64,000 bases of DNA, taken from the NCBI RefSeq assembly GCF_018885305.1, contig NZ_CP076544.1, positions 1,798,001-1,862,000 of the forward strand, read 5' to 3'. The notes below the pieces were generated by a model. It searched no databases. It had not been told where the DNA came from and saw nothing but the letters and a program-made list of their open reading frames with translations. Below, piece after piece: positions 12,727 to 29,371 of the stretch; the stretch's first letter is position 1; each line of letters begins with the position of its first letter. This stretch comes from Curtobacterium sp. L6-1 (lineage in GTDB: Bacteria > Actinomycetota > Actinomycetes > Actinomycetales > Microbacteriaceae). The position numbers and the translations under genes are program-made.

Positions 12727-12782
12727 GCAACGACCGTACCGGCGAGCGGGAGCGTCTTCTGTGCCGCCCTAGGCTCGAGGGC

Positions 12783-13448
12783 ATGGACATCCTCCGGCCC
12801 ATCGACCTCGCGTCATGGCCGCGCCGCGAGCACTTCGAGCACTACCGCGAACGCGTCCCCTGCACCTACGCGATGACGGTGGACGTCGACGTCACCGAAC
12901 TCGTCGACACCCTGCGCGGTACTCCGGTCAGGAGTTCCGTGGCGCAGATCTGGGCCCTGTCGGCCGTCGTCAACAGGCACGCCGAGTTCCGCACGGCACT
13001 CGACCCCTCCGGTGCCCCGGCCGTGTGGGACGTCCTGCACCCGTCGTTCACGGTGTTCAACCCGGAGCGGGAGACGTTCGCGAGCGTGTGGACGCCGCAC
13101 CGCGAGGACTTCGTGACGTTCCACCGTGAAGCCGCCGACGTCCTCGACCAGTACCGCACGGCGTCCTCGCTCTTCCCGCAGGACGACGTGCCACCGAACG
13201 TGTTCGACGTGTCGAGCATCCCGTGGACGTCGTTCACGGGGTTCACGCTGGGCATCCGGGATGCACGGGACCACCTGGCGCCGATCTTCACCCTCGGCCG
13301 CTACCGGCGGATCGAGGACCGGGTCATCCTGCCCTTGGCCGTCCAGATCCACCACGCTGCGGCGGACGGGTTCCACACGGCCCGTCTCGTCACCGAGTTG
13401 CAGGAGCTGTTCGCCTCACCGCAGTGGGCCTCCGGACCCGCCAGCTGA
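12783..13448 (+). CDS. Chloramphenicol acetyltransferase-like (CAT) protein
   Basis: A 221-residue protein of the classical trimeric CAT family. The catalytic-histidine motif HHAAADGFH is at residues 190-198 and the structural motifs FTVFNPE and SIPWTSFTGF are present, as in CAT enzymes. Length is normal. Transcription may start at the ATG (TAGGCT ends 10 nt before it), so the mRNA may be leaderless. Many environmental CAT-family proteins do not confer resistance, so chloramphenicol as substrate is inference. The neighbouring genes give no further clue. Confidence 0.82.
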   Translation: MDILRPIDLASWPRREHFEHYRERVPCTYAMTVDVDVTELVDTLRGTPVRSSVAQIWALSAVVNRHAEFRTALDPSGAPAVWDVLHPSFTVFNPERETFASVWTPHREDFVTFHREAADVLDQYRTASSLFPQDDVPPNVFDVSSIPWTSFTGFTLGIRDARDHLAPIFTLGRYRRIEDRVILPLAVQIHHAAADGFHTARLVTELQELFASPQWASGPAS

Positions 13449-15250: not shown

Positions 15251-15787
15251 TCAGGAGCGCCGACCGCCCACTGCAGCCAGGTACGCGGACCACTCCTTCG
15301 GACACCGTGCTGCGAGCCACCCGGCCAGCTCATCGGTTCCCGGGTACCCGATGAACGCCTGGAAGAGGCGCTTCTTCCGGTCCCCCCTACCGACGATGCT
15401 CGACCAGGTCATGCCGTTCCTCGACTGCACCTCGGACTGCAGCGCCCGGATGTCGGTCGGTCGCACGATCCGGGGCTTGCGGAAGCCGAACCGCACCGCC
15501 AGGTGGTCGTCGAAGCCCTCGATTCCCGAGCGCCGGATCGCTGCGGCGAGCAGCACAGCGAGGGCGCCGGTGCCACAGAAGAAGAAGACCGACAGCCCGG
15601 CCATCGTCATCGCGTCCGGCCGCCCGGACGTGGCGTCGCGCACGGCCGAGACGAGGCCGACCAGCACGATCACCAGTCCCGCGACGAACCACATCATCCA
15701 CTGCCAGGTGGGTCGCCGGGTCCGGAACAGCGCCTTCCTCGGCGCGTCCGGCGTGGCCCCGCCCCAGGTGTTCGTCATCTCGCTCAT
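15251..15787 (-). CDS. Hypothetical two-helix membrane protein
   Basis: A 178-residue protein with a polar N-terminus, two close membrane helices (about residues 30-50 and 65-85) and a cytoplasmic C-terminal domain of about 90 residues (GFDDHLAVRFGFRKPRIVR...). I do not recognise it. ATG 15787 lies 49 bp downstream of the GH92 stop on the same strand, so it may be the last gene of the glycan operon or an independent gene. Nothing in it points to carbohydrate work. Confidence 0.6.
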   Translation of the reverse strand: MSEMTNTWGGATPDAPRKALFRTRRPTWQWMMWFVAGLVIVLVGLVSAVRDATSGRPDAMTMAGLSVFFFCGTGALAVLLAAAIRRSGIEGFDDHLAVRFGFRKPRIVRPTDIRALQSEVQSRNGMTWSSIVGRGDRKKRLFQAFIGYPGTDELAGWLAARCPKEWSAYLAAVGGRRS

Positions 15788-15836
15788 CGTTCCCCCTCCA
15801 CGTCGACCGTAGCGCCGGGAGCGGTCGACCGTCCGG

Positions 15837-18800
15837 TCAGCGGGTCCCACCGTCCGCCGCGACGAGCTGCAGCTGTGTGAGCGCGACCGGCGTCAGCGCC
15901 AGGAACGTCAGCGTCCCGCCGTCGACCCCACCGGCGAAGGGGAACACCCGCGTCTGCCCGGCCCAGGCGAACTCCTCGTCGAGACCGTCGAGCGTGTGCA
16001 CGACGTACCCGTCGGCGCTCCGCAGCGTGATCCGCCACGACGCGGTGCCGGGTGTCGCCGCCGTCACCGTCACGAGTGAGGCCGCCGCCACCGAGACCGG
16101 CACGTCGACGGACTCCCCCGCGGCGAGCGACACGACGGTCCTCCCGGCGTCGTCCGTGAGCGGTGACGCCCCGACCGGTAGGACGTCGTCGGGGGTGTCC
16201 CGGTACCCGTGCTGCTCGGACGCCGAGGTCGGGCGCGTGTCCGCCGCCCAGCCGACCGGGGTCTCCGACAGCGCGACGACGATCCGCGAGGCGCCGACGA
16301 CGACCGCGTGCGGGATGCTGATCGACGTCCACGGCTCCCCGTCGACGGTGACGGAGGCGATGAACCGCCCGGTGCCGGCGGTCTCGATGACAGTGGGCGA
16401 TCCTCCCGGTCGGCGCAGCACCGTCCGCCGGACCGCCGGCGGCACGAGCACGTAGGTCCCGGTCGACGGCGCCAGCGGGTACAGCCCGATCGTCGCGAAG
16501 ACGTACCAGGCGCTCATCTCGCCGTTGTCCTCGTCGCCGGGGTACCCCTGGCCGAGGTCCGAGCCGACGAACAGCCGGTCGAGGCACTCGCGGACGATCC
16601 GGTGCGCGTCGTCGTGCCGCCCGGTGGCCATCGGGAAGAACGGGATGTGGTGCGCCGGCTGGTTCGACAGCCCGAGCATGCCCATCCGGACATCCCGGGC
16701 CTCGGTCATCTCGTGGATCGCGAACCCGTACGAGCCGGACCGGTCGGTGCGGCCGGTCTCGCGGCGCTCGGTGAACCGGTCGAAGGCGGCGTCGAACGCG
16801 GCCGGTCCGCCGTGCAGGTCGACGATCCCGGCACTGTCGTGGGGCGCGGTGAACATCGTCCCCCACGCGTTCGTCTCGGTGTAGTCGCTCCCCCACACGT
16901 CGGGGTCGAAGTCGGCACCCGCGCGCCACGACCCGTCGGGGGTGCGGCCGATGAAGAACCCCCGATCGCGGTCGAAGACGTTGCGGTACTGCAACGACCG
17001 GCGGGCGAACCACTCGTGCTCGGCCCGGTACCGTGCTCCGCCGGCCGTGTCCCCGGCCGCGGCCGCACGCTGCGCCATCGCGTCCGCCAGCACGGCGACG
17101 CCCCAGTCGTTGATGGCCGCGTCGAGGGTCCACGACATCCCCTCGCCGGTCGCGGTGTCGACGTACCCGCGGAACAGGCCCGGGAGGCTCCCCTTCCGTC
17201 CGACCCGTCGGTCCGGAGAGGGGACGGTCGCGTTCCGCAGTGCCGACCGGTAGGCCTGCTCGACGTCGAACCCGTCGACGCCCTTCGCCACGAGGTCGGC
17301 GAAGACCGTGTCGCTCGTCGTGCCGGTCATGACGTCCTCGGCGCCGGGTGCACTCCAGCGCGGGGTCCAGCCGCCGTCGACGAAGTGTCCGACGACGCCC
17401 TCGGCGAGGTCGGCCGCGGTGTCCGGGGTAAGGAGCGCGAGGAGCGGCCAGGCCGTGCGGTAGGTGTCCCAGAACCCGTTCGTCGTGGTGAGCGGCCCCT
17501 CGACGATCTCTGGACCGGGCTCGTCGCGGATCGGCTCCGACAGGACGGCGCCGTACGGAGACCGATGGCGCGGGCTCCCCGTCCGCGCGGTCTCCCCCGC
17601 CCGGGTCGGGTAGAGGAAGGCCCGGTACAGGCCGGAGTACAGCGACACGAGCTGGTCCTCGGTGGCGCCCTCGACCTGCAGCACGTCGAGTTCCGCGACC
17701 CAGCGTTCCTCCGCGTGCTCGCGCATCGCGTCGAAGTCGCCCGCGGCGGCGAGGTTCGCGACGGCGTCCTCGGCGGAGACGGTCGAGATGCCGAGCAAGA
17801 CGTCGGTGTCCCCGGCGACCTCGACCCAGCCGCGCAGCTCGCCGTCGACGAACGCGGTGTGCTCGGCGACGGCGTTCGCGATGCGCAGGTGCACGTGGTG
17901 CGGCGGGGTCTCGGCACGGTCGTCGAGCAGGGCGTCGACCACGGCGGTGCCGTCCTCGACCCGGACCGCGCAGGAGCGCAGGACACCGTGGTGGTCGAGC
18001 ACGACGCTGCGGGCACCGGTGAACCGCCAGGCCAGGGCGAACTCCCCCGCGGTCAGCTCGGCGGTCACACCCTCGTCGAGGGCGACCTGGTACCGGTGCG
18101 GGCCGTCGAGTTCGTCGACGTGGTCGAACCCGAGCGCGCGGGCGGTCCGGTCGGGGTCGGGCGAGGCGAGCGGCGACGGCATGACCTGGAACACCCCGCG
18201 GTCGGCCATCCACGGGGACGGCAGGTGGCTCGTGGCGAACGCCTGGATCGTCGGCCGGTTGTCGCTCGCCCGGTTGTGCTCCTGGTAGGCGTACGGCCAC
18301 CGGCTGTCGGACGCGTTCGTCATCGGCAGCCCGAACACGCCCCCGTGCGGGAGCCCGACGAGCGGTGCGTTGTTCCCGCGCGAGAACGTGCCCGACGAGT
18401 GCGTGCCGCGGGTGGTGCGGACGTGGTCGAGCGGACGCGCGTCCGCGGGGAGGGCGCCGGTGGCGGGACCGGCGGGCTCGATGCGGACGTCGTCGAGCCA
18501 CCCGCGCACCGACCGGGCCGACGGTCCGCCGACGGAGGCGGGCCGGTCTGCCCGGCCGAGCCGCGCCTCCAGGCGGTCCACCACCCGACCGGCGGCCGCC
18601 GACAGGTCGACGGTGCGGCGGTTCCACTGGTCGACCCACTGCTTGCCGGCGTCGTCCTGCCCGGCCGGGGTGACGACGTCGCCGTACTGGTCTCGGGCGC
18701 CGCCCTCGCTCAGTCGGGTGCCGTCGGTGAAGACGACGTCGAGTGCGAACGCCGTGGCGGCCCAGAACCCGTCGAGGTCCCGGACTGCCGGTTCGGTCTG

Positions 18801-19034
18801 CCCCTCGGGCAGCGACCGCTCCGGGAACCAGACCCAGGTCAGGACGTCGGTGGGGCCGACCTCCCGACCGGTCAGCCCGCGGAGGACCTGCACGGTCTCC
18901 CCCGGCCCGGTCTGCTCGACCAGGGTCGCCTCCTGCGAGACGAACCCGACCCCGTTCCGGGCCGCGACCGCGGTCACCGGACCGGTGTTCGTCGGGCTGT
19001 CAGTGGTCGGGCCGCCACGGCGCACGTCACTCAT
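15837..19034 (-). CDS. GH92 family alpha-1,2-mannosidase (cytoplasmic)
   Basis: A 1065-residue glycoside hydrolase family 92 protein. GH92 enzymes are calcium-dependent inverting exo-alpha-mannosidases, mostly alpha-1,2-specific, that trim high-mannose N-glycans. The N-terminal beta-sandwich region contains HNRASDNRPTIQ. The catalytic (alpha/alpha)6 domain has TNGFWDTYRT and the diagnostic GDEDNGEMSAWYVF near residue 835, including the acidic catalytic and metal-binding residues. There is no signal peptide, so it should act after glycan import. It lies 15 bp after the Endo H gene in the same operon. Family is clear; exact linkage specificity is inferred from family and context. Confidence 0.94.
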   Translation of the reverse strand: MSDVRRGGPTTDSPTNTGPVTAVAARNGVGFVSQEATLVEQTGPGETVQVLRGLTGREVGPTDVLTWVWFPERSLPEGQTEPAVRDLDGFWAATAFALDVVFTDGTRLSEGGARDQYGDVVTPAGQDDAGKQWVDQWNRRTVDLSAAAGRVVDRLEARLGRADRPASVGGPSARSVRGWLDDVRIEPAGPATGALPADARPLDHVRTTRGTHSSGTFSRGNNAPLVGLPHGGVFGLPMTNASDSRWPYAYQEHNRASDNRPTIQAFATSHLPSPWMADRGVFQVMPSPLASPDPDRTARALGFDHVDELDGPHRYQVALDEGVTAELTAGEFALAWRFTGARSVVLDHHGVLRSCAVRVEDGTAVVDALLDDRAETPPHHVHLRIANAVAEHTAFVDGELRGWVEVAGDTDVLLGISTVSAEDAVANLAAAGDFDAMREHAEERWVAELDVLQVEGATEDQLVSLYSGLYRAFLYPTRAGETARTGSPRHRSPYGAVLSEPIRDEPGPEIVEGPLTTTNGFWDTYRTAWPLLALLTPDTAADLAEGVVGHFVDGGWTPRWSAPGAEDVMTGTTSDTVFADLVAKGVDGFDVEQAYRSALRNATVPSPDRRVGRKGSLPGLFRGYVDTATGEGMSWTLDAAINDWGVAVLADAMAQRAAAAGDTAGGARYRAEHEWFARRSLQYRNVFDRDRGFFIGRTPDGSWRAGADFDPDVWGSDYTETNAWGTMFTAPHDSAGIVDLHGGPAAFDAAFDRFTERRETGRTDRSGSYGFAIHEMTEARDVRMGMLGLSNQPAHHIPFFPMATGRHDDAHRIVRECLDRLFVGSDLGQGYPGDEDNGEMSAWYVFATIGLYPLAPSTGTYVLVPPAVRRTVLRRPGGSPTVIETAGTGRFIASVTVDGEPWTSISIPHAVVVGASRIVVALSETPVGWAADTRPTSASEQHGYRDTPDDVLPVGASPLTDDAGRTVVSLAAGESVDVPVSVAAASLVTVTAATPGTASWRITLRSADGYVVHTLDGLDEEFAWAGQTRVFPFAGGVDGGTLTFLALTPVALTQLQLVAADGGTR

Positions 19035-19049
19035 GGATCGATCGTTCCC

Positions 19050-20027
19050 CTACTTGTAGACCGCGGACTGACCGTAGAGCACCTGCGTGAACTGCGACAC
19101 GTAGGGGCTGACGTCGCCGTCCGGCAGGTTGTACGTCATGAAGACGCCGTACCCGTCGGCCTTCGAGCGCTCGGCGAGCGAGACGGCCAGGTCCGCCGGC
19201 GTGTTCTGGATGTCCACCGCCGCAGCCGAGAGCTTCGACTTCGGCAGGCCCGGGATCGTCGGCGCCGTGTAGGTGCCGTAGTACGGGTTCCACGCGTAGT
19301 CGAGCTTCTTGCCGATCGACGGCTTCTCGTGCTGCAGCGACGTCGACGACGGGCCGATGTCGTAGAACGAGATGATCTTGCCGGGCATGTCCGCGCGGAG
19401 CGCCGAGACGAGCCATCCGATCGACTGGTCGTTCGGCTGCGGGGTGCCGTCCACGCCGTAGTCCGAGTACTCGTCGTCGAGGTCGACGCCGTCCAGCCCG
19501 TACTTCTCGACCGTCGCCGACACCTGGGCCGCGAAGTCCCGCGCGTCCGCCTTCGACGTGAAGTTGGCCAGACCCGTGCCCTGGTGGTTGCCGAGCACCG
19601 AGAGCGTGACCTTGATGCCCTTCGCCTGCAGCGGGCGGATCTGGGTCGCCGCCTGGTCGAGCGTGCGCTGCACGTTCTCGTTGGCGTACAGGACTGCGTC
19701 GCCGTCCGCGTCCCGGTTGATGTTCGCGGCGAAGATGATCGCCACGTCGAACGCGTTCGCGCCGTTCTCGAGCGTGTACCGGCCGACGTTCCGGAGCTCG
19801 TCGTTGTTCACCTCGACGTAGGCGATGCTCGTCGGCCCGGACTTCGTCGGGGCGGCGTGCCCCGGGCGTCCGTTCCCGTGGCCGTGGCCGTGGCCGTGGC
19901 CGTGCCCGTGCCCGTGGGATGCCGCTGCTGGCCCGCCCGGTGCTGCCGACGCGGCGGCGGGCACCATCGGCGCCGCCACCATGGCGACGAGCGCCGCCAC
20001 AATCCCGATCTTCATGGTCTTCTGCAT
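19050..20027 (-). CDS. Secreted endo-beta-N-acetylglucosaminidase, Endo H type (GH18)
   Basis: A 325-residue homologue of Streptomyces Endo H, which cuts the GlcNAc-GlcNAc bond of high-mannose and hybrid N-glycans. From memory, long stretches match Endo H, including AYVEVNN, FAANIN, TQIRPLQ, SVLGNHQG and YAWNPYYGT. The GH18 catalytic motif is DGVDLDDEY (residues 179-187), with D184 and E186 corresponding to D130 and E132 of Endo H. A signal peptide (about residues 1-31) is followed by an alternating His-Gly linker before the enzyme domain begins, so it should be exported. ATG 20027 follows GAGGAG. It is the only clearly secreted enzyme of the operon. Confidence 0.95.
   Translation of the reverse strand: MQKTMKIGIVAALVAMVAAPMVPAAASAAPGGPAAASHGHGHGHGHGHGHGNGRPGHAAPTKSGPTSIAYVEVNNDELRNVGRYTLENGANAFDVAIIFAANINRDADGDAVLYANENVQRTLDQAATQIRPLQAKGIKVTLSVLGNHQGTGLANFTSKADARDFAAQVSATVEKYGLDGVDLDDEYSDYGVDGTPQPNDQSIGWLVSALRADMPGKIISFYDIGPSSTSLQHEKPSIGKKLDYAWNPYYGTYTAPTIPGLPKSKLSAAAVDIQNTPADLAVSLAERSKADGYGVFMTYNLPDGDVSPYVSQFTQVLYGQSAVYK
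19875..19919. repeat. Hexanucleotide repeat encoding His-Gly in the Endo H linker
   Basis: About seven copies of CCGTGG/CCGTGC, read on the reverse strand as alternating His and Gly codons just after the signal peptide. It keeps frame. Confidence 0.85.
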
Positions 20028-20098
20028 GACACTCCTCTTCGAGTGGTGTCCGCGGCGACGAGGTGCCGCCGCGGTCCACGACCGGTCCGGCCGTGGGA

Positions 20099-20133
20099 CC
20101 CGCCGCCGGGACACCCGAAGTCCCGGCGGCGGG
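20099..20133 (-). terminator. Intra-operon hairpin between GH38 and Endo H genes
   Basis: A perfect 14-bp GC stem with a 7-base loop lies 18 bp past the GH38 stop and 71 bp before Endo H. It could terminate part of the transcripts or protect the upstream mRNA 3' end. Confidence 0.55.
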
Positions 20134-20151
20134 GGTCTCAGTGCTCCCCCG

Positions 20152-23100
20152 TCAGTGCGCTGCGGCCCGGCGAGCAAAGCGGAAGGTGCGGACCTCGAAG
20201 GCGTCGACCGGGAAGGCCGCCACCCCGTCCGTGACCGAGGCGACGCCGGGCAGCGCCGGGTTCGTCTCCTCGAGCAGCGTGACCTCGACCGGCTCGTCGA
20301 ACGGTCCGTCGACCGCCAGGCCTCCGGTGCCGCGACGACCCTCGGGCTCGTACACGCGGACGACCAGGTCACCCGAGCGGTCGTCGGCGAGCTTGACGGC
20401 CGAGACCACGACGTCGCCGGAGGCCTGCACGAGCGCGTCGAAGCCGTGCGCGCCGGTGATCCGTCGGACCGACGTGTTCATGACCGTGCCCGCAGCGGTC
20501 GCTCCGACCACATCGGTCCCGATCACCAGGCCGTACCGGTGCGTCTGGACGCCCTGGTCGGTCTCCGGGTCCGGGAACCGGGGCGCCCGGAGCAGCGAGA
20601 GCCGCAGCGTCGTGGTGACGTGTCCGTCGACCGAGTCGCGCGTGACGTCGAACCCGTGGATCGAGTCGTTGACGAGGGCGACGCCGAACCCGGGCTCCTC
20701 GACGAGCACGTACCGGTGCATCGAGGTCTCGAACTTCGCGGCCTCCCACGAGGTGTTCGTGTGCGTCACCCGCTTCTGCGCGCCGAACTGCGTCTCCGCG
20801 ATGGTGTGCTCGGCGCGGACGTCGAGTGGGAACGCGACCTTGAGGAACTTCTCGGTCTCGTGCCAGTCCGTCACCTGGTCGAACTCGAGCGTGCGGGTAC
20901 CGGGTGCGAGCGTGATCTCCTGCGTGACCGTCGACTCGCTGAACGACCGCGACACCGTCACCCGGGCGGTGCCGTCCTCGTCGACCGAGCCGCGCAGGGC
21001 GGTCACGTCGACCAGGTCGTCGACACGGTTCCGGTAGTACCGGTCGACGTCCCACGCGTCCCACATGTTCGGGAAGTCCTGGTGCAGCTGCAGCAGGTTC
21101 GCCACCTGGCCCGGTGCGATCGCGTCGCGGCCGGTGGACAGGTCGACGGCGCTCGTCACGAGCCCGCGGCCGTCGACGACGACGCGGACCAGGTCGTTCG
21201 TGAGCACGAACCCGCCGTCGGCCTCGGCGATCGCGACCGGGGTGGTCGCCTCGACGTCGGTGGTCAGGATCGCGCTCTGCGCGAGGGCGCCGCCCTGGAG
21301 GGACGGGGCCGGGTTCACGACGACCGTCGCGTCCCCGTCCCCGGCGAGGGCCGACAGGGCGGACGTGATCAGGGCCTCCAGCCGGGCCGCGATCTCCGCG
21401 TACCGCTCGACGGCCTCGCGGTGCACCCACGCGATCGAGGTGCCCGGCAGGATGTCGTGGAACTGCTGGAGCAGGACCTGCTGCCAGAGCGCGTCGAGCT
21501 CGTCGTACGGGTAGGCGAAGTCGGTGCGGGCGGCGGCCGTTGCACACCACAGCTCGGCCTCGACGAGCAGGTGCTCGCTCCGGCGGTTGCCCTGCTTCGT
21601 CTGGTGCTGGCTCGTGAGCGTCGCGCGGTGCAGCTCGAGGTAGAGCTCGCCGACCCACACGGGCGGGTTCTCGAGCTCGGACTTCGCCCGGTCGAAGAAC
21701 GCGTCCGGGTGCTCCCACGTGACGCGGGCACTGCCCTCGAGGTCGGCCAGCCGCGCGGCCGTGCCGGTCATCTCGCGGGTGGTGCCGCCGCCGCCGTCAC
21801 CCCAGCCGACCGGCGCGATCGACCCGGTGGCCAGGCGGTTCTCCCGGAACTGGCGGGAGGCCTTCGCGACCTCGGACCCGGACAGCCGCGAGTTGTACGT
21901 GTCCATCGACGGGAAGTGCGAGAACACCCGCGAGCCGTCGATGCCCTCCCAGAGGAACGTGTGGTGCGGGAACTTGTTCACCTGGTTCCACGAGATCTTC
22001 TGCGTGAAGAACCACTCGAAGCCCGCGCGGCGCATGAGCTGCGGCAGCGCCGGCGAGTACCCGAAGCTGTCCGGCAACCAGACACCCTTCGGTCGGATGC
22101 CGAACTCGCGCTCGAAGAACCGCTGGCCCTGCGAGAACTGCCGGACGATGCTCTCACCGGTCGGCATCACGGTGTCGGACTCGACCCACATCCCACCGAG
22201 GGGCAGGAACCGGCCGGCGGCGACGGCGTCCTTGACCTTCGCGTACACCTCGGGGCGGTGCTCCTTGATCCAGGCGTACTGCTGGGCGCTCGACATGCCG
22301 TAGAGGAAGTCGTCGGTCTGGCCGATGAGCTCGGTCATGCTCGAGGTGGTGCGGGCGACCTTGCGGATCGTCTCGCGGACCGGCCAGAGCCAGGCGGAGT
22401 CGATGTGCGCGTGGCCGACGGCGGAGATCCGGTGCGCGGAGGCCTCAGCGGGCGCGGCGAGCACCTCGGCGAGCGCCGCACGGGCGTCGGGGGCGGTCTC
22501 CGGGATGTGCTGCAGGTCGAGGGCGTCGAGGGCGTCGTCGAGCGCCTGCAGGATCCGCATGCGGCGCGGGCCCTGGGGCAGCTCCTCCTGCAGTTCGAGC
22601 AGGACGTCGATGTCGAGTGCGAGTTCGTGCACCTCGGACGCGAACACGGCGAGGTCCATCCGTCGTGACGTGTAGAGCCGCTTCGGGGACGAGGTGCGGA
22701 CGTCGCCCTCCTGCGTGACGAGGAAGGGGTGGTAGTCGAGCAGCACCGGGTTGGACGCCGCCTCGACGAAGAACTCGACGGTCTCGCCGCCGACGGCCTG
22801 CTCGGCGACGAGCACCCACTGGTTGCGCGGGTTGATCGACTTCACCGGGGTGCCGTCGGACAGGTACACGAGCCCCTCGCACTGGAAGCCCGGCATGTTC
22901 TTGTCGAACCCCAGGTCGACGAGCGCCTCGACCCGCTGCCCGGCCCAGGCGGTGGGGACGGTGCCGGACAGCCGGAACCAGGTGGTGCCCCACGCGGCGC
23001 CCCAGGGTGTGCCGACCTCGTACGGCTCGAAGTCCAGCGCGAGTCCCTCGGCTGGGGCGACCGGCTCACCGGGCAACTCGTGCCAGGCGGTGTCGAGCGG

Positions 23101-23187
23101 GACGGCGGTGGCGTGCACCTCGGGCAGGATGCGCTCGTCGAGGACGCGGCGGGCGCGGCCGATGGTGAGCGGGATGTCGTCGTGCAT
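20152..23187 (-). CDS. GH38 family alpha-mannosidase (cytoplasmic)
   Basis: A 1011-residue GH38 alpha-mannosidase, a zinc-dependent retaining enzyme that removes alpha-linked mannose from N-glycan arms. An N-terminal domain precedes the catalytic barrel, which has the zinc and nucleophile motifs GHAHIDSAWLW (about residue 260) and LPDSFGYSPALPQL (about residue 370). The middle three-helix and C-terminal beta domains complete the usual length. There is no signal peptide, so it acts on imported glycans. ATG 23187 with GGGAGGA seven bases upstream is preferred over a longer frame that would run through short repeats. The gene lies between the GH5_18-like gene and Endo H. Linkage preference cannot be read from sequence. 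Confidence 0.95.
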   Translation of the reverse strand: MHDDIPLTIGRARRVLDERILPEVHATAVPLDTAWHELPGEPVAPAEGLALDFEPYEVGTPWGAAWGTTWFRLSGTVPTAWAGQRVEALVDLGFDKNMPGFQCEGLVYLSDGTPVKSINPRNQWVLVAEQAVGGETVEFFVEAASNPVLLDYHPFLVTQEGDVRTSSPKRLYTSRRMDLAVFASEVHELALDIDVLLELQEELPQGPRRMRILQALDDALDALDLQHIPETAPDARAALAEVLAAPAEASAHRISAVGHAHIDSAWLWPVRETIRKVARTTSSMTELIGQTDDFLYGMSSAQQYAWIKEHRPEVYAKVKDAVAAGRFLPLGGMWVESDTVMPTGESIVRQFSQGQRFFEREFGIRPKGVWLPDSFGYSPALPQLMRRAGFEWFFTQKISWNQVNKFPHHTFLWEGIDGSRVFSHFPSMDTYNSRLSGSEVAKASRQFRENRLATGSIAPVGWGDGGGGTTREMTGTAARLADLEGSARVTWEHPDAFFDRAKSELENPPVWVGELYLELHRATLTSQHQTKQGNRRSEHLLVEAELWCATAAARTDFAYPYDELDALWQQVLLQQFHDILPGTSIAWVHREAVERYAEIAARLEALITSALSALAGDGDATVVVNPAPSLQGGALAQSAILTTDVEATTPVAIAEADGGFVLTNDLVRVVVDGRGLVTSAVDLSTGRDAIAPGQVANLLQLHQDFPNMWDAWDVDRYYRNRVDDLVDVTALRGSVDEDGTARVTVSRSFSESTVTQEITLAPGTRTLEFDQVTDWHETEKFLKVAFPLDVRAEHTIAETQFGAQKRVTHTNTSWEAAKFETSMHRYVLVEEPGFGVALVNDSIHGFDVTRDSVDGHVTTTLRLSLLRAPRFPDPETDQGVQTHRYGLVIGTDVVGATAAGTVMNTSVRRITGAHGFDALVQASGDVVVSAVKLADDRSGDLVVRVYEPEGRRGTGGLAVDGPFDEPVEVTLLEETNPALPGVASVTDGVAAFPVDAFEVRTFRFARRAAAH

Positions 23188-23238
23188 GGGTCCTCCCGGG
23201 GACGGCCGTGACCGTCCGGGTCGTCGGGGCGTGGGGCG

Positions 23239-23345
23239 TGGGGCGTGGTGCTGGTCGTGCCGGTGGTGCTGGTCCTGCTGGGTCGTGCTCGTGTGGTGCT
23301 GGTCCTGCGGGGTGGTGCTGGTGTGGTGCTGGTCCTGCGGCGTGC
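23239..23345. repeat. Degenerate tandem repeat upstream of the GH38 gene
   Basis: Repeated GTGGTGCTGGTCCTGC-like units about 30 bp long fill the 172-bp gap between the GH5_18-like and GH38 genes. Read on the reverse strand they would encode 10-residue repeats (PQDQHHTSTT), but the frame lacks a start with a ribosome site. Confidence 0.7.
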
Positions 23346-23359
23346 TGCTCGTCGTGCGG

Positions 23360-24799
23360 TCAGGGCATCGTCGCGGGGTGGGCGACCGAAACGGTGGCGG
23401 ATGCGGTGTCGCCGGGCACGTCGATGCACGTGGTGATCCCCCGGTCGCGGAGGAGCACCGCGTCAGGCACCCGGGAGCGGAGCACGACCTGGGGACCGCG
23501 GCCGTCCTGCTCCGCGATCGCGAGCCACGCCGCGGCGAAGCGACCACCGGGAGCGGAGTCGGCCCGCGTCCCGCCGAGCGGTGTGCCGTCCGGGGCGACG
23601 TCGTCGAGCACGAGTGCGGTCGTCGGCGGGGTCGGCGCCCGGTACGCGCCGTCGCCGAACGCCGCGGCCATCTCGCGGAACCGCTCCCCCGTCGGCTTCA
23701 CCCGACCGTCGTTCGTGAGCAGGCCGAGGTCGTACTCGAGCTCCGGGAAGTCGGCGAGCGAGCGGGAGACGTCGTGGGAGCACCACCACGTGATGCCGAA
23801 CAGCCCCTGCACGTCGAGGGCGTGCCGGATCGTCTGCTCGGTGAACGTCGGGGCGTCGGCCACGTCCACCACGTTGGTGGGTGCGCCGACCTCCTGCAAC
23901 CAGTTCGGCCGGTCCGCGCTGGTGTTCCACGCGGCCGCGAGCTGGAGCAGGTACTCGCCGTGCCGGACCGACCCGGGACCCAGGGCGCCGTGCACGCGGG
24001 CCGCGCCGTTGAACACCCACGAGTGCGTGACCGTGGCGTCGCCGTGCTCGGCGGCGTGCTCGGGGCCGAAGGGCTGCGCGTCGTCGTACCAGGCGGCGTC
24101 GTACTGGGCGAGGGTGACGAGCGGTGCCGGGCGCTCGCCGGTGGCGGGGGCGGGTCGGACGCCGGACGCGGGGCGGGCCTCCATGCCGGACGACCCCGAC
24201 GACCCGGACCTGGCTGACGCAGCTGACGGCCCGGACGCGGCGGACGGTGCGAGCCCACCGGACTCGCTCGTCCCGAGACCCGCCCGCGCTGCCGCGACCA
24301 TCGTGGCCGCCCACGCGTGCCCCTGCTCGGGCGTGGTGGGGAACGGTGCCGGGTGCGGGGCGTGCGCGAACTGGTTGACCTCGTTGCCGACCGTGACGCC
24401 GAGCAGGTTCGGCCGTCCCGCGACCGCACCCGCCAGCGCCTGAACGTACGCGGCCGTCGAGGCGACCACGTCCGGGTCGGTGAACATGTTCCGCCGGTGC
24501 CAGCTGTCCAGCCACGACGGCAGGAAGTCGAAGCTCGACAGGTGTCCCTGCAGCGCGTCGACCGTGACGTCGAGCCCGAAGGACGCCGCGATGTCGACCA
24601 CGGTGGCGACGTCGGCCAGGGCGGCCGGGCGGATGAGCGTCCGGTTCGGCTGGACGACCGGCCAGAGCGGGAACACCCGCACGTGGTCGGCCCCGAGCCC
24701 GGCGATCGCCTCGAGGTCCCGCGCCGTGTCCGACGGCGAGAAGTCGAGCCACGAGTGGAACCACCCGTTGGACGGGGTGTGGTTGACGCCGAAGCGCAT
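23360..24799 (-). CDS. GH5_18-like beta-mannosidase (Man-beta-1,4-GlcNAc acting)
   Basis: A 479-residue (beta/alpha)8 glycosidase resembling GH5 subfamily 18, whose Bifidobacterium member removes the core beta-mannose of N-glycans. The N-terminus FGVNHTPSNGWFHSWLDF and HVRFPLW-type strand VRVFPLWP are seen, with the acid/base glutamate E140 in TVGNEVNQF and nucleophile E303 in LQEVGAPTN. An Ala/Ser/Pro-rich insertion of about 50 residues lies after residue 165. There is no signal peptide. Its ATG overlaps the upstream permease stop (ATGA), tying it to the importer. The subfamily call is from memory of motifs and strong context; GH5 membership itself is firmer. Confidence 0.78.
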   Translation of the reverse strand: MRFGVNHTPSNGWFHSWLDFSPSDTARDLEAIAGLGADHVRVFPLWPVVQPNRTLIRPAALADVATVVDIAASFGLDVTVDALQGHLSSFDFLPSWLDSWHRRNMFTDPDVVASTAAYVQALAGAVAGRPNLLGVTVGNEVNQFAHAPHPAPFPTTPEQGHAWAATMVAAARAGLGTSESGGLAPSAASGPSAASARSGSSGSSGMEARPASGVRPAPATGERPAPLVTLAQYDAAWYDDAQPFGPEHAAEHGDATVTHSWVFNGAARVHGALGPGSVRHGEYLLQLAAAWNTSADRPNWLQEVGAPTNVVDVADAPTFTEQTIRHALDVQGLFGITWWCSHDVSRSLADFPELEYDLGLLTNDGRVKPTGERFREMAAAFGDGAYRAPTPPTTALVLDDVAPDGTPLGGTRADSAPGGRFAAAWLAIAEQDGRGPQVVLRSRVPDAVLLRDRGITTCIDVPGDTASATVSVAHPATMP

Positions 24800-25806
24800 C
24801 AGCCCTTCACCCCGCCCTCTTCGACGCCCTTGAAGAAGAAGCGCTGGAGCACGGCGAAGATCACGGCGATCGGGATGAACGCGATCATCGTGCCGGCCGC
24901 GATCATCCGCTGGTCGGTGGCGAACGTGCCCTGCAGGTACTGGAGGCCGACGGTCAGCGTCAGCTTGTCCGGCGACTGCAGCACGATGAGTGGCCAGAGG
25001 AAGTCGTCCCACGCGCCGATGAACGAGAAGATCGCGATGACGGCGATCGTCCCCTGCACGGCGGGCAGCGAGATGTACCGGAGGCGCTGCATCGCGTTCG
25101 CCCCGTCCATCACCGCGGCCTGGTCGATCTCCTCGGGCACCTGTCGGAAGGCGTTGAACATGAGCAGCACGTTGAGCGCGGCGATCATCCCCGGGAGGGC
25201 GACACCGACCAGGGAGTCGGCGAGGCCGAGGTCCTTCACGGTGACGAACTGGGAGATGATCGTCGCCTCACCGGGCAGCACGAGCGTGGCGAGGAACAGG
25301 CCCAGGATGATCTTCCGACCTCGCCACTGCAGTCGGGCGAGGGCGAAGCCGGCGAGCGTCGCGAAGACGATGTTCCCGATGACGTCGATCGCGGCGACGA
25401 TGAGCGAGTTGCCGATGTAGCCGAAGACCGGGATGGCCTCGCCGACGCGCAGGTAGTTGCCGAACGTCGGCTGCGACGGGATGAACGAGGGGTTCGCGGT
25501 GTAGATGTCCTCGCCCGTGCCCTTGAGCGACGTGGAGAGCTGCCAGAGGAACGGGCCGATCGTGATGAAGAGCACCACGACGAGCAGCACGTAGCGGACC
25601 GCCTTCTCGCGGGTGGACATGACGCCCCAGACCGCGCGGCGGCGCCGCTTCGGTCCGGTCGTCCCGTCCCGTCCGTCCGGCCCGTTCGGCCCCTTCGGTC
25701 GGGAGGCCCGGCCGGCGTCGGTCGCGCCGGTCACGTCCGGTGTCGGTGCGGCCGCGCCGGCGTTGCCGCCGATGACCGGTTCGCTGGTGTCCGTCGTGTT
25801 CGTCAC
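24799..25806 (-). CDS. ABC sugar importer permease 2 (MalG type)
   Basis: A 335-residue inner-membrane permease. A disordered Pro/Gly/Asp-rich N-terminus of about 50 residues is followed by six membrane helices. The EAA loop that docks the ATPase is EEIDQAAVMDGANAMQRLRYISLP. The GTG start at 25806 overlaps the stop of permease 1 (GTGA). MalG-type permeases pair with a MalF-type partner in CUT1 importers of oligosaccharides. No ATPase gene is present, as is normal for actinobacteria that share an MsiK-like ATPase. Confidence 0.92.
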   Translation of the reverse strand: MTNTTDTSEPVIGGNAGAAAPTPDVTGATDAGRASRPKGPNGPDGRDGTTGPKRRRRAVWGVMSTREKAVRYVLLVVVLFITIGPFLWQLSTSLKGTGEDIYTANPSFIPSQPTFGNYLRVGEAIPVFGYIGNSLIVAAIDVIGNIVFATLAGFALARLQWRGRKIILGLFLATLVLPGEATIISQFVTVKDLGLADSLVGVALPGMIAALNVLLMFNAFRQVPEEIDQAAVMDGANAMQRLRYISLPAVQGTIAVIAIFSFIGAWDDFLWPLIVLQSPDKLTLTVGLQYLQGTFATDQRMIAAGTMIAFIPIAVIFAVLQRFFFKGVEEGGVKG

Positions 25807-26681
25807 TTGTCCGCCTTGCTGTTCATCCGCGCGAGGGCGAGCATCGGGATCAGGGTCACGGCGAAGAGCAGGAGGCTCAGGGCGGACGCGTAGCCGAGGT
25901 TGCCGGTGAAGCCGCGGGCGTACTGCTGGATGAGCATGACGAGCGAGTTGTCCTGCCCGCCGGGGCCGCCCGTCCCGTTCGTCAGGATGTAGAGCTCGCT
26001 GAACACCCGGAGCGCCGAGACGCAGACCAGGATGCCGACGAGGGTCATGGTGCCGCGGACGCCGGGCATGGTGACCGACCAGAACCGGCGGACCGCACCG
26101 GCGCCGTCGAGCGCGGCGGCCTCGTGCAGGTCCTTCCCGACGTTCCCGAGGGCGGCCAGGAAGATGATCATGTAGTAGCCGAGTCCCTTCCACACGGTCA
26201 GGCTGATGGCGCTGAACAGCAGCAGCCACCGGTCGGACAGGAACGGGATCGCGCCCTGCACGACGCCGAGCGACTGCGCCATCTCGTTGACGACACCGCG
26301 GTCGTCGAGGATCCAGTTCCAGATGAGCCCGACGACGACCGCGCTCGCGATCACCGGCGTGTAGTAGGCCGTCCGGAAGAACGCGATCCCGGGCATCCGG
26401 TGCTGGACGAGCACGGCCATGAGGAGCGGGAGGATCGTCAGCAGCGGCAGGCACACCACCATGTAGATGACGCTGTTGAGCAGCGCCTCCCACACCTGCG
26501 GGTCCGCGAGCAGGGTGCGGAAGTTCGCGGTCCCCACCCACGCGCTGACCCCACCGAGCGGGCTGGCGTTCGTGAACGACAGCCGCACGGTGTTGATCGA
26601 CGGCCAGAGACTGAACGCGAGCAGCCAGACCAGTGCGGGCAGCACCAGCAGCCAGGGCGTGAACCAACGGTTCGCACGCAT
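25803..26681 (-). CDS. ABC sugar importer permease 1 (MalF type)
   Basis: A 292-residue permease with six predicted membrane helices and the EAA loop EAAALDGAGAVRRFWSVTMP that contacts the ATPase. It lies 36 bp after the binding-protein gene and overlaps permease 2. Together the three genes encode a CUT1-type oligosaccharide importer. The substrate is inferred from the neighbouring Endo H and mannosidases to be released high-mannose N-glycan. Confidence 0.93.
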   Translation of the reverse strand: MRANRWFTPWLLVLPALVWLLAFSLWPSINTVRLSFTNASPLGGVSAWVGTANFRTLLADPQVWEALLNSVIYMVVCLPLLTILPLLMAVLVQHRMPGIAFFRTAYYTPVIASAVVVGLIWNWILDDRGVVNEMAQSLGVVQGAIPFLSDRWLLLFSAISLTVWKGLGYYMIIFLAALGNVGKDLHEAAALDGAGAVRRFWSVTMPGVRGTMTLVGILVCVSALRVFSELYILTNGTGGPGGQDNSLVMLIQQYARGFTGNLGYASALSLLLFAVTLIPMLALARMNSKADK

Positions 26682-26717
26682 GACGATCCTCCCTCTTCCT
26701 TCGTGTGTCGGGCCGGA

Positions 26718-28013
26718 TCAGCCGTTGGCGAGCAGGGTGTTCATCTTGGTCTGCGCGGTCTGCAGCGCCTTCTCGGGGGTCGTGCCGCCCTTCATCGCCA
26801 GCGCGATCTGCTGGTCGAGGAAGTCCGTCATCGCTGAGTTCGCCTCGACCGGGTTGAGGTTCTTCGCGGTCTTCAGGGCGTCGTTGGCGAGGACGCGGGC
26901 CTTCGCCTGCACGGTGCCGTCGTCCTTCGAGAAGAACGGGTCGGACTGCGAGGACTTCGTCGACGGGAAGATGTTCACCAGGTGCGCGAACGCCTCCTGG
27001 TTCTCGGCGTTCGTCATGAAGGCCGCGAGGGCCTCGGCCGTGGCGATGTGCTTGCTCTTCGCCGAGACGCTGAGCCCCTGGACGTACAGCGGCGGGTTGT
27101 CCAGCGCCGGCGAGACGACGATGTTGCCCTTGAGCGACGGGTTGTTCTTCTCGAAGTCACTGATCGCCGTGGCGCCACCGGTCGTCCACGCGACCTTGCC
27201 CTGCGTGAACAGCGTCGAGTTGCCGAGGTAGTCGGTGTTGAGGACCGAGGACGGCATGAGGCCGTCCTCGTACGCCTTCGCGTACTTCGCGATGAGGTCG
27301 GCGGCCTTCGAGGAATCCGCGAAGGTGAACTTCGTGCCCTCGTCGTTGAGGATCTCCACCCCGGCGAGCGAGAAGTCGGACAGGCCGGGCTTGCGGCTCA
27401 TCAGGTAGTCGTCCGGGCACTTCTCGTGCATCGTCTCGGCCTGCGTGAACAGCTCGTCCGTGGTCGTCGGCGGGCTGGCCGGGTCGAGGCCGCACCGCTC
27501 GAACATCGTCTTGTTCCAGTAGTCGATGTCGGTGTTGAGGTACCAGGGGTAGCCGAATGTGCCGTCGACTCCCTTGTACTCGTACGCGGCGAGCCCGCCC
27601 TCGACGTAGGTCTTCGCGAGCGTGTCGTCGTCCTTCGCGATGTCCTGCAGGAACCCGCGCTTGGCGAGGGGCAGCGCGATGTCCGGCGGCAGGTTGACCA
27701 CGTCGGGCAGCGAGTTCGAGGACGCCTGGCTGAGCACCTTCTCGGCGTAGCCGTCGCCGGGCTGGTCGACGAGCTTCACCTTCGCCTTCGGGTACTTCTC
27801 CTCGAAGTCCTTCACGACGCCGTCGAGGTACTTCGTGTAGGTCGGCGTGAGGGCCCAGGTCTGCAGGGTGATCGACCCGCTGACCTCGCCGTCGCCGCCG
27901 CCGGTGGCTGCACCGCTGCCGCTCGAGCAACCGGTGAGGACGAGCGCTGCCGCTGCGGCGCCGGCGAGGATCGCGGCCACTCGGCCCGACGTCGTGCGTG
28001 GGGTGGTTCTCAT
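26718..28013 (-). CDS. ABC importer substrate-binding lipoprotein (probable N-glycan)
   Basis: A 431-residue extracellular solute-binding protein of family 1. The signal peptide ends in the lipobox LVLTGCSS, predicting a lipid anchor at the cysteine. The sugar-binding fold is seen in ITLQTWALTPTY near the N-terminus and FGYPWYLNTDIDYWN in the middle. ATG 28013 follows AAGGAG. It is the first gene of the operon, downstream of LacI-type operators. By analogy with NgtS of pneumococcus it may bind Endo H products, but sequence alone shows only an oligosaccharide-type binding protein. Confidence 0.92.
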   Translation of the reverse strand: MRTTPRTTSGRVAAILAGAAAAALVLTGCSSGSGAATGGGDGEVSGSITLQTWALTPTYTKYLDGVVKDFEEKYPKAKVKLVDQPGDGYAEKVLSQASSNSLPDVVNLPPDIALPLAKRGFLQDIAKDDDTLAKTYVEGGLAAYEYKGVDGTFGYPWYLNTDIDYWNKTMFERCGLDPASPPTTTDELFTQAETMHEKCPDDYLMSRKPGLSDFSLAGVEILNDEGTKFTFADSSKAADLIAKYAKAYEDGLMPSSVLNTDYLGNSTLFTQGKVAWTTGGATAISDFEKNNPSLKGNIVVSPALDNPPLYVQGLSVSAKSKHIATAEALAAFMTNAENQEAFAHLVNIFPSTKSSQSDPFFSKDDGTVQAKARVLANDALKTAKNLNPVEANSAMTDFLDQQIALAMKGGTTPEKALQTAQTKMNTLLANG

Positions 28014-28038
28014 CGTTGCTGACTCCTTCGTCGAGCTA

Positions 28039-28052
28039 CTGAACCGGTTCAG
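28039..28052 (-). promoter_or_regulatory. LacI-type operator in the glycan operon leader
   Basis: CTGAACCGGTTCAG is a perfect 14-bp palindrome with the central CG of LacI-family operators, 26 bp upstream of the binding-protein start codon. It lies downstream of the likely promoter, where a bound repressor would block elongation or initiation. Confidence 0.65.
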
Positions 28053-28082
28053 CCTTCTGCGCCGAACCGCTGCGTGACGGCG

Positions 28083-28111
28083 ACGATGCCTGACTAAAGC
28101 GCTATAGTCAA
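28083..28111 (-). promoter_or_regulatory. Divergent promoters with overlapping LacI operator
   Basis: TGACTAAAGCGCTATAGTCA (28091-28110) is a near-perfect 20-bp palindrome, with one mismatched pair and a central CG. On the reverse strand it lies between a -35 (TTGACT, 28106-28111) and a weak -10 (CATCGT, 28083-28088) spaced 17 bp apart. On the forward strand it contains the -10 of lacI (TATAGT, 28103-28108), which ends 7 nt before the GTG. Confidence 0.7.
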
Positions 28112-28115
28112 GCCC

Positions 28116-29159
28116 GTGGCCACAGGACGCCGGACGACGATCGCCGACATCGCAGCGCGGGCCGGCGTGTCGATCAGCGCCGTGTCCTTCGCCCTCAACG
28201 GGCGCCCCGGCGTGTCCGAGGCGACGCGCGAACGGGTGCGGCAGGCCGCTCGCGAACTCGACTGGCGTCCGCACACCGCGGCGCGCGCGCTCGGCGGAGC
28301 CCGTGCCGGGACGATCGGGTTCGTCCTCAACCGGCCGGCCCGGACCCTGGGCACCGAGTCCTTCTTCGGCGACCTCATCTCCGGCATCCAGCTCGGCCTC
28401 ACCGGGACGCACATCGGCATGACGCTCCTCGTCGCTCGCGACGCCGACGAGGAGCTCGAGACCTACCGCGACTGGTGGCGCGGGCACCGGGTCGACGGCG
28501 TCGTCGTCATCGACCCGCGCCGCGACGACGACCGCCTGCGCTTGCTCGCGGAGCTCGGGATGCCGTGCGTGGTCGTCGGTTCCCACCCGACCCCGGCCGG
28601 ATCGGCTCCGAGCGTGTGGATCGACGACTCGGACGCCACCGACACCGTGCTGCGCTACCTCCGCGCCCTCGGCCACCGGCGGATCGCACACGTGTCCGGT
28701 CCCCCGGAGTTCGAGCACACGGCGCTGCGCATCGAGCGCGTCCAGGCGTTCGCGGGCACGCTCGTCGATGCCGACCCGGACGACCGCACCGAGTCCGTGC
28801 CCACCGACTACTCGGCCGAGGCCGGTGCGGCGGCCACCCGACGGCTCCTGTCCGGGGCGACCCGTCCCACGGCGATCGTGTTCGACAACGACGTGCTCGC
28901 CGTGGCGGGCCTCGGCGTCGCGAGCGAGATGGGCGTGCGGGTGCCGCAGGACGTCTCGATCGTGTCGTTCGACGACTCGGCGATGATCCGGCTGGTCCGA
29001 CCGGCCATCACCTCGCTCACCCGTGACACCGTCGAGCTCGGGCAGCGTGCGGCGGTCCTGCTCCGCGAGCAGATCGAGGCGGACGCTCCGCTGCCGTCCC
29101 GGCCCGGGCCGGAGCTGACGTTGAGCGTGCGGGAGTCGACGGCGCGCGTCGGGGGCTGA
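28116..29159 (+). CDS. LacI family transcriptional regulator of the N-glycan operon
   Basis: A 347-residue LacI/GalR regulator. The N-terminal helix-turn-helix and hinge region (TTIADIAARAGVSISAVSFALNGRPGVSE) is followed by a periplasmic-binding-protein-like ligand domain. It is divergent from the binding protein-permease-glycosidase operon, and its own -10 lies inside a palindromic operator, so it probably represses itself and the operon. GTG 28116 is at the predicted transcription start, so the mRNA is likely leaderless. The inducer is probably mannose or a small mannoside, by inference. Confidence 0.92.
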   Translation: MATGRRTTIADIAARAGVSISAVSFALNGRPGVSEATRERVRQAARELDWRPHTAARALGGARAGTIGFVLNRPARTLGTESFFGDLISGIQLGLTGTHIGMTLLVARDADEELETYRDWWRGHRVDGVVVIDPRRDDDRLRLLAELGMPCVVVGSHPTPAGSAPSVWIDDSDATDTVLRYLRALGHRRIAHVSGPPEFEHTALRIERVQAFAGTLVDADPDDRTESVPTDYSAEAGAAATRRLLSGATRPTAIVFDNDVLAVAGLGVASEMGVRVPQDVSIVSFDDSAMIRLVRPAITSLTRDTVELGQRAAVLLREQIEADAPLPSRPGPELTLSVRESTARVGG

Positions 29160-29371
29160 GCGGCCCGTCCGCGTGGTCGGTGGAGCACGGCCGCCGGTCG
29201 CCCCGCGCCGACCGCGTGCGGGACCGCCGAGGAGACCCCGGCTGCGTCCCCGACGGCGGGCCGGTTCGTGTATGGTTCCGATCACCGAGGTAAAAGGCGC
29301 CGCCGTCTGCGACGCACCAGCACGCGGCATCGAACGAGTCGCCACTTCTTCCCGCGAAGGAGTGTGCCCCC

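What the first reader, a model, noticed from the sequence alone, without database searches (positions are those of the whole stretch)
15837..29159. Complete high-mannose N-glycan foraging operon with Endo H
One reverse-strand operon encodes a lipoprotein-type sugar importer, a GH5_18-like beta-mannosidase, GH38 and GH92 alpha-mannosidases without signal peptides, and a secreted Endo H homologue, divergent from a LacI regulator. This order predicts extracellular release of high-mannose glycans, import, and intracellular stripping of every mannose, including the core beta-mannose. Pneumococcus and bifidobacteria have comparable sets, but usually with different endoglycosidases (GH85) and without this exact arrangement. 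In a plant-associated actinobacterium the substrate could be plant, fungal or insect glycoprotein.
Basis: partly seen in the sequence, partly recalled or inferred. Interest (0 to 1): 0.75.

Follow-up and report, generated by a model that had tools for sequence, protein, structure and literature searches.

The report
Curtobacterium operon for eating high-mannose N-glycans
This bacterial gene cluster looks built to cut mannose-rich sugar chains off foreign glycoproteins, import them and take them apart inside the cell; the pathway type is already known from related bacteria, and this is a clear member with some new details of gene control.

Summary
Minus strand, 28013-15837: sugar-binding lipoprotein, two permeases, GH5_18 beta-mannosidase, GH38, secreted Endo H, GH92; divergent LacI at 28116-29159. 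Each enzyme matches a family with solved members and keeps its catalytic motif. No ATPase lies in the operon; one MalK-type ATPase is encoded elsewhere. The nearest named relatives are Curtobacterium.

The pathway reading holds by homology, but two claims need trimming. The arrangement is not special to this genome: 34 of 37 named Curtobacterium Endo H loci, and one Streptomyces, show the same seven-gene order. And GH92 is optional: 3 of 18 fetched relatives have it in the operon, the other 15 elsewhere.

New details: two operator-like palindromes 55 bp apart in the divergent promoter, conserved in the genus and nearly unique in the genome; a covarying hairpin between GH38 and Endo H in 32 of 56 loci; and, in 24 of 24 genomes of the genus, exactly one GH92 of this type, either in the operon or at a solitary site with another operator-like repeat.

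GH38/GH5_18 N-glycan loci are a known kind, so this is a new member of moderate interest. Nothing was tested at the bench.

The parts
26718..28013 (-). extracellular solute-binding lipoprotein (SBP), 431 aa, lipobox Cys29
   Evidence: PF13416/PF01547; closest PDB sequence 6wpm, a substrate-binding protein, E 5e-24; lipobox by eye
25803..26681 (-). ABC sugar permease 1, 292 aa
   Evidence: PF00528
24799..25806 (-). ABC sugar permease 2, 335 aa
   Evidence: PF00528
23360..24799 (-). GH5_18 beta-mannosidase, 479 aa, no signal peptide by eye; Glu140 and Glu303; variable low-complexity loop about residues 175-223
   Evidence: 7lr7/7lr8 ScGH5_18, 6mp2 BlMan5B, 6gvb; positions; loop
20152..23187 (-). 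GH38 alpha-mannosidase of the Ams1/7ufr type, 1011 aa, no signal peptide by eye; His261, Asp263, Asp338, His577 (catalytic roles recalled)
   Evidence: PF01074, PF09261, PF07748, PF17677; 7ufr E 2.1e-237
20100..20132 (-). hairpin between GH38 and Endo H, 12-bp stem, loop CTTCGGGTG
   Evidence: 32 of 56 loci examined, 9 distinct stems
19050..20027 (-). Endo H-type GH18 endo-beta-N-acetylglucosaminidase, 325 aa, signal peptide by eye and His-Gly linker; Asp184, Glu186
   Evidence: NF045482 over cut-off; 1edt E 6e-95; invariant columns
15837..19034 (-). GH92 alpha-mannosidase, 1065 aa, no signal peptide by eye; Glu720 and Asp834/Asp836 in the acid and base motifs
   Evidence: PF07971, PF17678; 7nsn GH92 alpha-1,2-mannosidase E 5.1e-191
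28116..29159 (+). LacI-family regulator, 347 aa
   Evidence: PF00356, PF13377
28039..28052 (.). operator-like palindrome O1, CTGAACCGGTTCAG
   Evidence: only exact copy in the genome; conserved
28092..28109 (.). operator-like imperfect palindrome O2, GACTAAAGCGCTATAGTC, containing a possible lacI -10 (TATAGT 28103-28108, inferred)
   Evidence: no sigma-70 hit by the scanner

Best explanation
It is a LacI-controlled N-glycan utilisation operon. Step 1 (inferred from family): secreted Endo H cuts between the two core GlcNAc residues of high-mannose or hybrid N-glycans, freeing Man(n)GlcNAc. Step 2 (inferred): the SBP and two permeases import it, powered by a MalK-type ATPase encoded elsewhere. 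Step 3 (inferred): in the cytoplasm GH38, with GH92 where present, removes the alpha-mannoses. Step 4 (activity shown for family members, not for this one): GH5_18 splits the remaining Man-beta-1,4-GlcNAc. GlcNAc then enters the general amino-sugar pathway (nagB is present). Because Endo H leaves the protein-linked GlcNAc and any core fucose behind, no fucosidase or hexosaminidase is needed. LacI probably represses in both directions through two operators 55 bp apart and lets go when an imported glycan fragment binds.
For: Family and catalytic motifs of each enzyme. Order LacI-SBP-perm1-perm2-GH5_18-GH38-Endo H kept in 18 of 18 fetched relatives (fetched were 18 of the 20 other Endo H-positive genomes of the genus, G009 and G022 left out) and in 34 of 37 named Curtobacterium loci (the two sets share genomes). 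All 4 other named Microbacteriaceae Endo H loci have GH5_18 and GH38 within 10 kb, in other orders. In 199 family genomes the 5 with Endo H (E<=1e-20) all have GH5_18 (E<=1e-30), against 11 of 199 overall (3 of 3 genera against 7 of 85). Signal-peptide-like start on Endo H by eye in 20 of 20 loci shown, and none on GH92 in 5 of 5. One OB_MalK ATPase and nagB over cut-off. Both operator sites in 43 of 45 distinct Curtobacterium promoter sequences; the motif CTNAANCGNTWNAG occurs at 3 places in the genome, 2 of them here. Described relative: GH38/GH5_18 locus with permeases, SBP and GH18 in C. acnes (PMC6160142 passages).
Against: No activity, binding or expression data. The SBP has only distant solved relatives (best E 5e-24), so its ligand is unknown. 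Outside Microbacteriaceae Endo H is seldom near GH5_18: 1 of 35 other actinobacterial loci (29 of 35 with full flanks). In 4 of 21 of those genomes searched no GH5_18 was found at E<=1e-20, and there is no baseline for GH5_18 in genomes without Endo H. Two Curtobacterium have Endo H on another contig than the operon (L128, L129). Three genomes of the genus (G003, G020, G023) keep a GH92 of this type without the operon. The hairpin may lower or separate Endo H-GH92 transcription. The promoter scan found no sigma-70 site.
Confidence: 0.82

Rival explanations
1. The operon mainly serves other alpha-mannosides, such as fragments of yeast or fungal cell-wall mannan, and Endo H is an accessory that loosens mannoproteins.
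For: GH38 and GH92 act on fungal alpha-mannan in B. thetaiotaomicron (PMC10154615 passages). The genome has a second GH38 beside an SBP gene and permease-like genes and a second GH92, so alpha-mannosides in general may be used.
Against: GH5_18, whose characterised members act on Man-beta-1,4-GlcNAc, has no evident use on alpha-mannan side chains. No GH76 or GH99 gene is among the operon's genes; the rest of the genome was not searched for them.
Confidence: 0.12
2. Endo H and GH92 form a separate transcription unit behind the hairpin, with its own function (for instance changing surface glycoproteins of a host or fungus), and only the upstream part is a nutrient operon.
For: Hairpin with covarying stem after GH38 in 32 of 56 loci. 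No GH5_18 or GH38 beside Endo H in 34 of 35 other actinobacterial loci and in two Curtobacterium. Other Microbacteriaceae have Endo H in other places of the locus.
Against: 24 of 56 loci lack this exact hairpin; 11 of these have only 19-62 bases between the GH38 and Endo H matches. Gene order is fixed in 18 of 18 relatives. The hairpin has no T tract and the terminator scan did not list it.
Confidence: 0.15

Closest known systems
C. acnes N-glycan locus 1 with CaMan5_18 (PMC6160142, passages)
   Same: GH38 and GH5_18 neighbours without signal peptides, sugar permeases, SBP, regulator, a GH18 in the locus
   Different: its GH18 is listed without signal peptide and closest to EndoT; it has a GH20 and an ATP-binding gene; the text holds no mention of GH92. 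Here a secreted Endo H, no ATPase and, in this genome, a GH92
GH5_18 loci of gut and soil actinobacteria (Higgins 2021; not held; seen only as a reference and one citing sentence; further content recalled)
   Same: GH5_18 core; a protein named ScGH5_18 is the best PDB match of the window's enzyme
   Different: I could not check which endoglycosidase and GH92 genes that paper lists
B. longum high-mannose operon (Cordeiro 2022; not held; as described in PMC10154615 passages)
   Same: glycan released outside, mannoses removed inside by GH38; the closest PDB relative of the window's GH38 is 7ufr (that it is from B. longum is recalled)
   Different: three GH38 and a GH125 there; one GH38 and a GH92 here
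S. pneumoniae EndoD/NgtS system (PMC5215778, passages)
   Same: endoglycosidase, N-glycan SBP with two permeases and no nearby ATPase, GH38 and GH92
   Different: GH85 EndoD, GH125 and GH20; GH92 proposed to act outside; genes in three places
Streptomyces Endo H (1edt; S. plicatus origin recalled and in titles)
   Same: Endo H-type GH18 over the whole catalytic domain
   Different: His-Gly linker; encoded in one operon with the other steps

Membership tests
Endo H-type GH18 | equivalog model score over cut-off | tested here: met
   NF045482 389.5 bits, cut-off 300
Endo H-type GH18 | DxxDxDxE catalytic motif | tested here: met
   DGVDLDDE with Asp184 and Glu186; these columns invariant in 6 of 6 aligned
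Endo H-type GH18 | cleaves high-mannose N-glycans | not testable with these tools
   needs enzyme assay
GH5_18 | closest to characterised GH5_18 enzymes | tested here: met
   8 of 10 PDB hits named GH5_18, BlMan5B or exo-beta-1,4-mannosidase; 9y4v only 'glycosyl hydrolase'; 7bob a mannanase at 7e-16
GH5_18 | both catalytic glutamates | tested here: met
   Glu140 (Ala in the 7lr8 chain) and Glu303; roles recalled
GH38 | domain set, catalytic Asp and metal ligands | tested here: met
   residue roles recalled
GH92 | catalytic domain, acid Glu and base Asp | tested here: met
   PF07971; TETNAW (Glu720) and GDEDNGEMSAW (Asp834, Asp836) align with 7nsn; acid and base named for Bt3990 in PMC5215778, matched here by motif only
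Gram-positive N-glycan utilisation locus | GH5_18 and GH38 with SBP and permeases | tested here: met
Gram-positive N-glycan utilisation locus | supports growth on N-glycan | not testable with these tools
   needs growth test
ABC importer | ATPase | tested here: inconclusive
   none in the operon; one OB_MalK ATPase at 3313810 of the genome; pairing not shown
LacI-regulated operon | palindromic operators with central CG in the promoter | tested here: met
   O1 and O2
LacI-regulated operon | regulator binds them and responds to a glycan | not testable with these tools
   needs binding assay

The most novel reading that the evidence does not exclude
In Curtobacterium one alpha-mannosidase step has been switched between two regulators. 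Each of 24 genomes examined has exactly one GH92 of this type, either in the LacI N-glycan operon or at a solitary site under a different 23-bp inverted repeat, never both; two redundant copies (or a copy exchanged between species) were resolved in favour of the operon copy in at least two lineages.
Probability: 0.5. Interest if true: 0.45.

Novelty: new member of a known kind. Interest (0 to 1): 0.38.

Why it matters
Endo H is a standard laboratory enzyme. In 34 of 35 actinobacterial loci outside Microbacteriaceae examined here (among the best 80 kept of 195) no GH5_18 or GH38 gene lies near it, so its setting there says little about its role. In Curtobacterium it sits in a conserved, repressor-linked operon with the other steps of high-mannose breakdown. 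That makes the nutritional role of Endo H testable by gene removal, and offers a matched set of enzymes.

Tried and rejected
Rejected: chance clustering (order kept in 18 of 18 relatives). Rejected: operators as chance palindromes (motif at 3 places in 3.4 Mb; reversed-pattern control 0 forward, 2 reverse). Not supported: a wide regulon by O1 (one exact copy; up to two mismatches 14 places against 12 for the control). Led nowhere: Rfam on 15700-29300 (one match, E 1, 20.5 bits against a gathering score of 40); Pfam and NCBIfam for GH5_18 (none); papers holding Curtobacterium, N-glycan and mannosidase (1 paper, on Mariniflexile); native Endo H operons (15 of 19 listed, none by title or start of abstract). 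Alignment A2 of LacI had rough coordinates for two rows and is not used.

A simple recent move of the solitary GH92 into the operon is not my preferred reading: operon GH92s are one clade (100/100) apart from the solitary clade (92/98, which warns of long branches for L085, L086 and L132), while G015 lies apart from G000, G007 and G019 on a polA-like marker tree and on the GH38 tree, at least two changes in each (in the marker tree 14 of 17 genomes gave a row and G003 and G020 were short). One Curtobacterium, MCBD17_013 (G259), has its GH92 in a third place, beside lacI (L232), outside both clades; it was not among the 24 genomes.

Mended at the self-check: wording on PDB names, the flank distances at the empty GH92 site, the -10 distance, the count of covarying pairs, and the distance of the second mannoside locus.
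Full report
WHAT IS THERE. From the divergent promoter leftward on the minus strand: SBP lipoprotein 28013-26718, permease 1 26681-25803, permease 2 25806-24799, GH5_18 24799-23360, GH38 23187-20152, Endo H 20027-19050, GH92 19034-15837. LacI runs rightward, 28116-29159. Junctions are tight or overlapping from SBP to GH5_18 and at Endo H-GH92, with 172 and 124 bp on the two sides of GH38. The window is G000:C1:1798001-1862000 of a 3.40-Mb one-contig genome.

WHAT THE PROTEINS ARE. Endo H passes the curated Endo H equivalog model (389.5 bits, cut-off 300) and matches 1edt at 6e-95. GH5_18 has no Pfam or NCBIfam match but aligns with ScGH5_18, BlGH5_18/BlMan5B and an exo-beta-1,4-mannosidase, 6gvb, which PMC6160142 names as the C. 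acnes enzyme; the 7lr8 chain has Ala where ours has Glu140. GH38 is closest to 7ufr (2.1e-237) and then to Ams1. GH92 is closest to 7nsn, a GH92 alpha-1,2-mannosidase (5.1e-191). The SBP has only distant solved relatives. Positions are; roles of the GH38, GH5_18 and Endo H residues are recalled.

IS THE ARRANGEMENT CONSERVED. Of 24 genomes of the genus (window included) 21 have Endo H and an operon-type GH5_18; G003, G020 and G023 have not (G003 has only a 47-55% identical GH5_18). I fetched 18 of the 20 other positives (not G009 and G022): all 18 have LacI, SBP, permease 1, permease 2, GH5_18, GH38 and Endo H in the same order and strands, and 3 of 18 have GH92 next. With Endo H as bait 195 named stretches matched and the best 80 were kept, so near relatives are over-represented. 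Of 37 Curtobacterium loci (one titled only Microbacteriaceae bacterium) 34 are collinear, 1 is a short contig, 2 have Endo H without the operon; 6 of 37 have GH92 there. In the latter 2 genomes the rest of the operon lies on another contig. All 4 loci of Leifsonia, Frigoribacterium and Labedella have GH5_18 and GH38 nearby in other orders, 2 of 4 with GH92. Of 35 loci from other actinobacteria only Streptomyces tateyamensis has the set, and in the same order; 29 of the 35 have full flanks. Serinibacter (1 locus) has only GH92 beside Endo H, with the rest about 20 kb away on the same contig; 3 Mucilaginibacter loci have neither GH5_18 nor GH38. The named set shares genomes with the 18. In 21 of the 35 genomes I looked for GH5_18 elsewhere: 17 have it at E<=1e-20; the baseline is not known. 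In 199 genomes of the family Endo H is in 5, GH5_18 in 11, and all 5 have both (11 and 8 candidates per genome scored at most).

REGULATION. The 102-bp divergent region holds O1 CTGAACCGGTTCAG (28039-28052) and O2 GACTAAAGCGCTATAGTC (28092-28109). Both fit CTNAANCGNTWNAG, which occurs at three places in the whole genome, two of them here. Of 51 distinct promoter sequences 45 are Curtobacterium. In 43 of the 45 both sites fit the motif (not L103, L231); in 43 of the 45 the best matches to O1 and O2 lie 55-57 bp apart, start to start (66 in L231 and L232). Two of two Leifsonia have one fitting site; Labedella, G202, Serinibacter and S. tateyamensis have none. O2 contains TATAGT seven bases before the lacI start codon, which suggests a leaderless lacI transcript, and, on the other strand, TTGACT reading toward the operon; the promoter roles are inference, and the promoter scan found nothing. 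Between GH38 and Endo H, 32 of 56 loci (window included; some genomes are in twice) have a hairpin with the loop CYYCGGGTG. It was picked by that loop and at least 9 of 12 pairs; all 32 have 12 pairs, G-U included, and among the 9 distinct stems seven of the twelve pairs change on both sides. Four further loci (L083, L112, L114, L115) show a similar hairpin with another loop, by eye. Of the 24 without it 11 have a plain junction of 19-62 bases between matches; two of the 24 (L231, L232) have no Endo H there. It has no T tract, is not in the terminator scan and matches no Rfam family.

THE GH92. Each of the 24 genomes of the genus has exactly one GH92 of the lower-scoring type (342-389 bits; open frame of about 1040-1200 residues except in G009 and G022, which lie on short contigs): 4 in the operon, 20 elsewhere. 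In 13 solitary loci fetched the protein start is not signal-peptide-like by eye, and in 13 of 13 a 23-bp inverted repeat TTTSSTCCAG-N3-CTGGASSAAA (up to two mismatches) stands upstream; none is in the window, and the O motif is absent from those 13 loci. In the four operon genomes the solitary site is empty: the matched flanks lie 133 (G000), 126 (G015), 9 (G007) and 181 (G019) bases apart. The operon copies form one clade, yet their genomes fall in two places on a polA-like marker tree and on the GH38 tree. Two old copies lost in turn, or transfer followed by loss, both fit. GH92 near Endo H in Frigoribacterium, Labedella, G202 and Serinibacter makes an old link plausible. Against a strict tie to the pathway: G003, G020 and G023 keep the solitary GH92 without the operon.

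REST OF THE PATHWAY. One OB_MalK-type ATPase and nagB are present; nagA and mannose enzymes were not searched. A second GH38 (48% identical) lies at 3.23 Mb beside an SBP gene and two genes weakly like the permeases, with nagB and a second GH92 about 8-12 kb further on.

COMPARISON. GH38-GH5_18 loci with transporters are described for C. acnes, with the pair noted in Bifidobacterium, Dermabacter and Arcanobacterium (PMC6160142 passages). A Curtobacterium genome paper lists two GH38 and two GH92 genes in each of five strains and files them under animal polysaccharides, without an N-glycan reading in the passages seen; the word glycoprotein does not occur in it (PMC8565777 passages). Higgins 2021 on gut and soil actinobacteria is known to me by its title and one citing sentence and recall. 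So the kind is known. In the paper searches I did not see a secreted Endo H described as part of such an operon; the library lacks most subscription papers, so this says little.

Noticed in passing
window 20100-20132 (-): Covarying hairpin between GH38 and Endo H, present in 32 of 56 loci and absent or different in the rest; role unknown.
   Followed up: partly
window 23360-24799, residues about 175-223: A loop of GH5_18 is a hypervariable low-complexity insert across Curtobacterium; for example L111 has repeated VDA units.
   Followed up: partly
window 19050-20027, N-terminus: His-Gly repeat linker after the Endo H signal peptide, differing in length and make-up among relatives and missing in some; a metal-binding role is possible.
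   Followed up: no
G000:C1:3230000-3258000 (L228, L229): Second GH38 beside an SBP gene and permease-like genes, with nagB and a second GH92 of another type nearby.
   Followed up: partly
L215-L227: Solitary GH92 preceded by a 23-bp inverted repeat TTTSSTCCAG-N3-CTGGASSAAA in 13 of 13 loci.
   Followed up: partly
L232 (Curtobacterium sp. MCBD17_013, G259): GH92 beside and convergent with lacI, a third place for this gene.
   Followed up: no
L168, L170 (Mucilaginibacter): Endo H relatives 54-55% identical, with a weak GH92 match (25% identity) within a few kb; possible transfer between phyla.
   Followed up: no
window 12318-13448 (+): ORF with a chloramphenicol acetyltransferase-family domain (PF00302).
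   Followed up: no
window 23188-23359: Intergenic GH5_18-GH38 stretch made of imperfect CACGACCAGCACCAC-like repeats, by eye.
   Followed up: no
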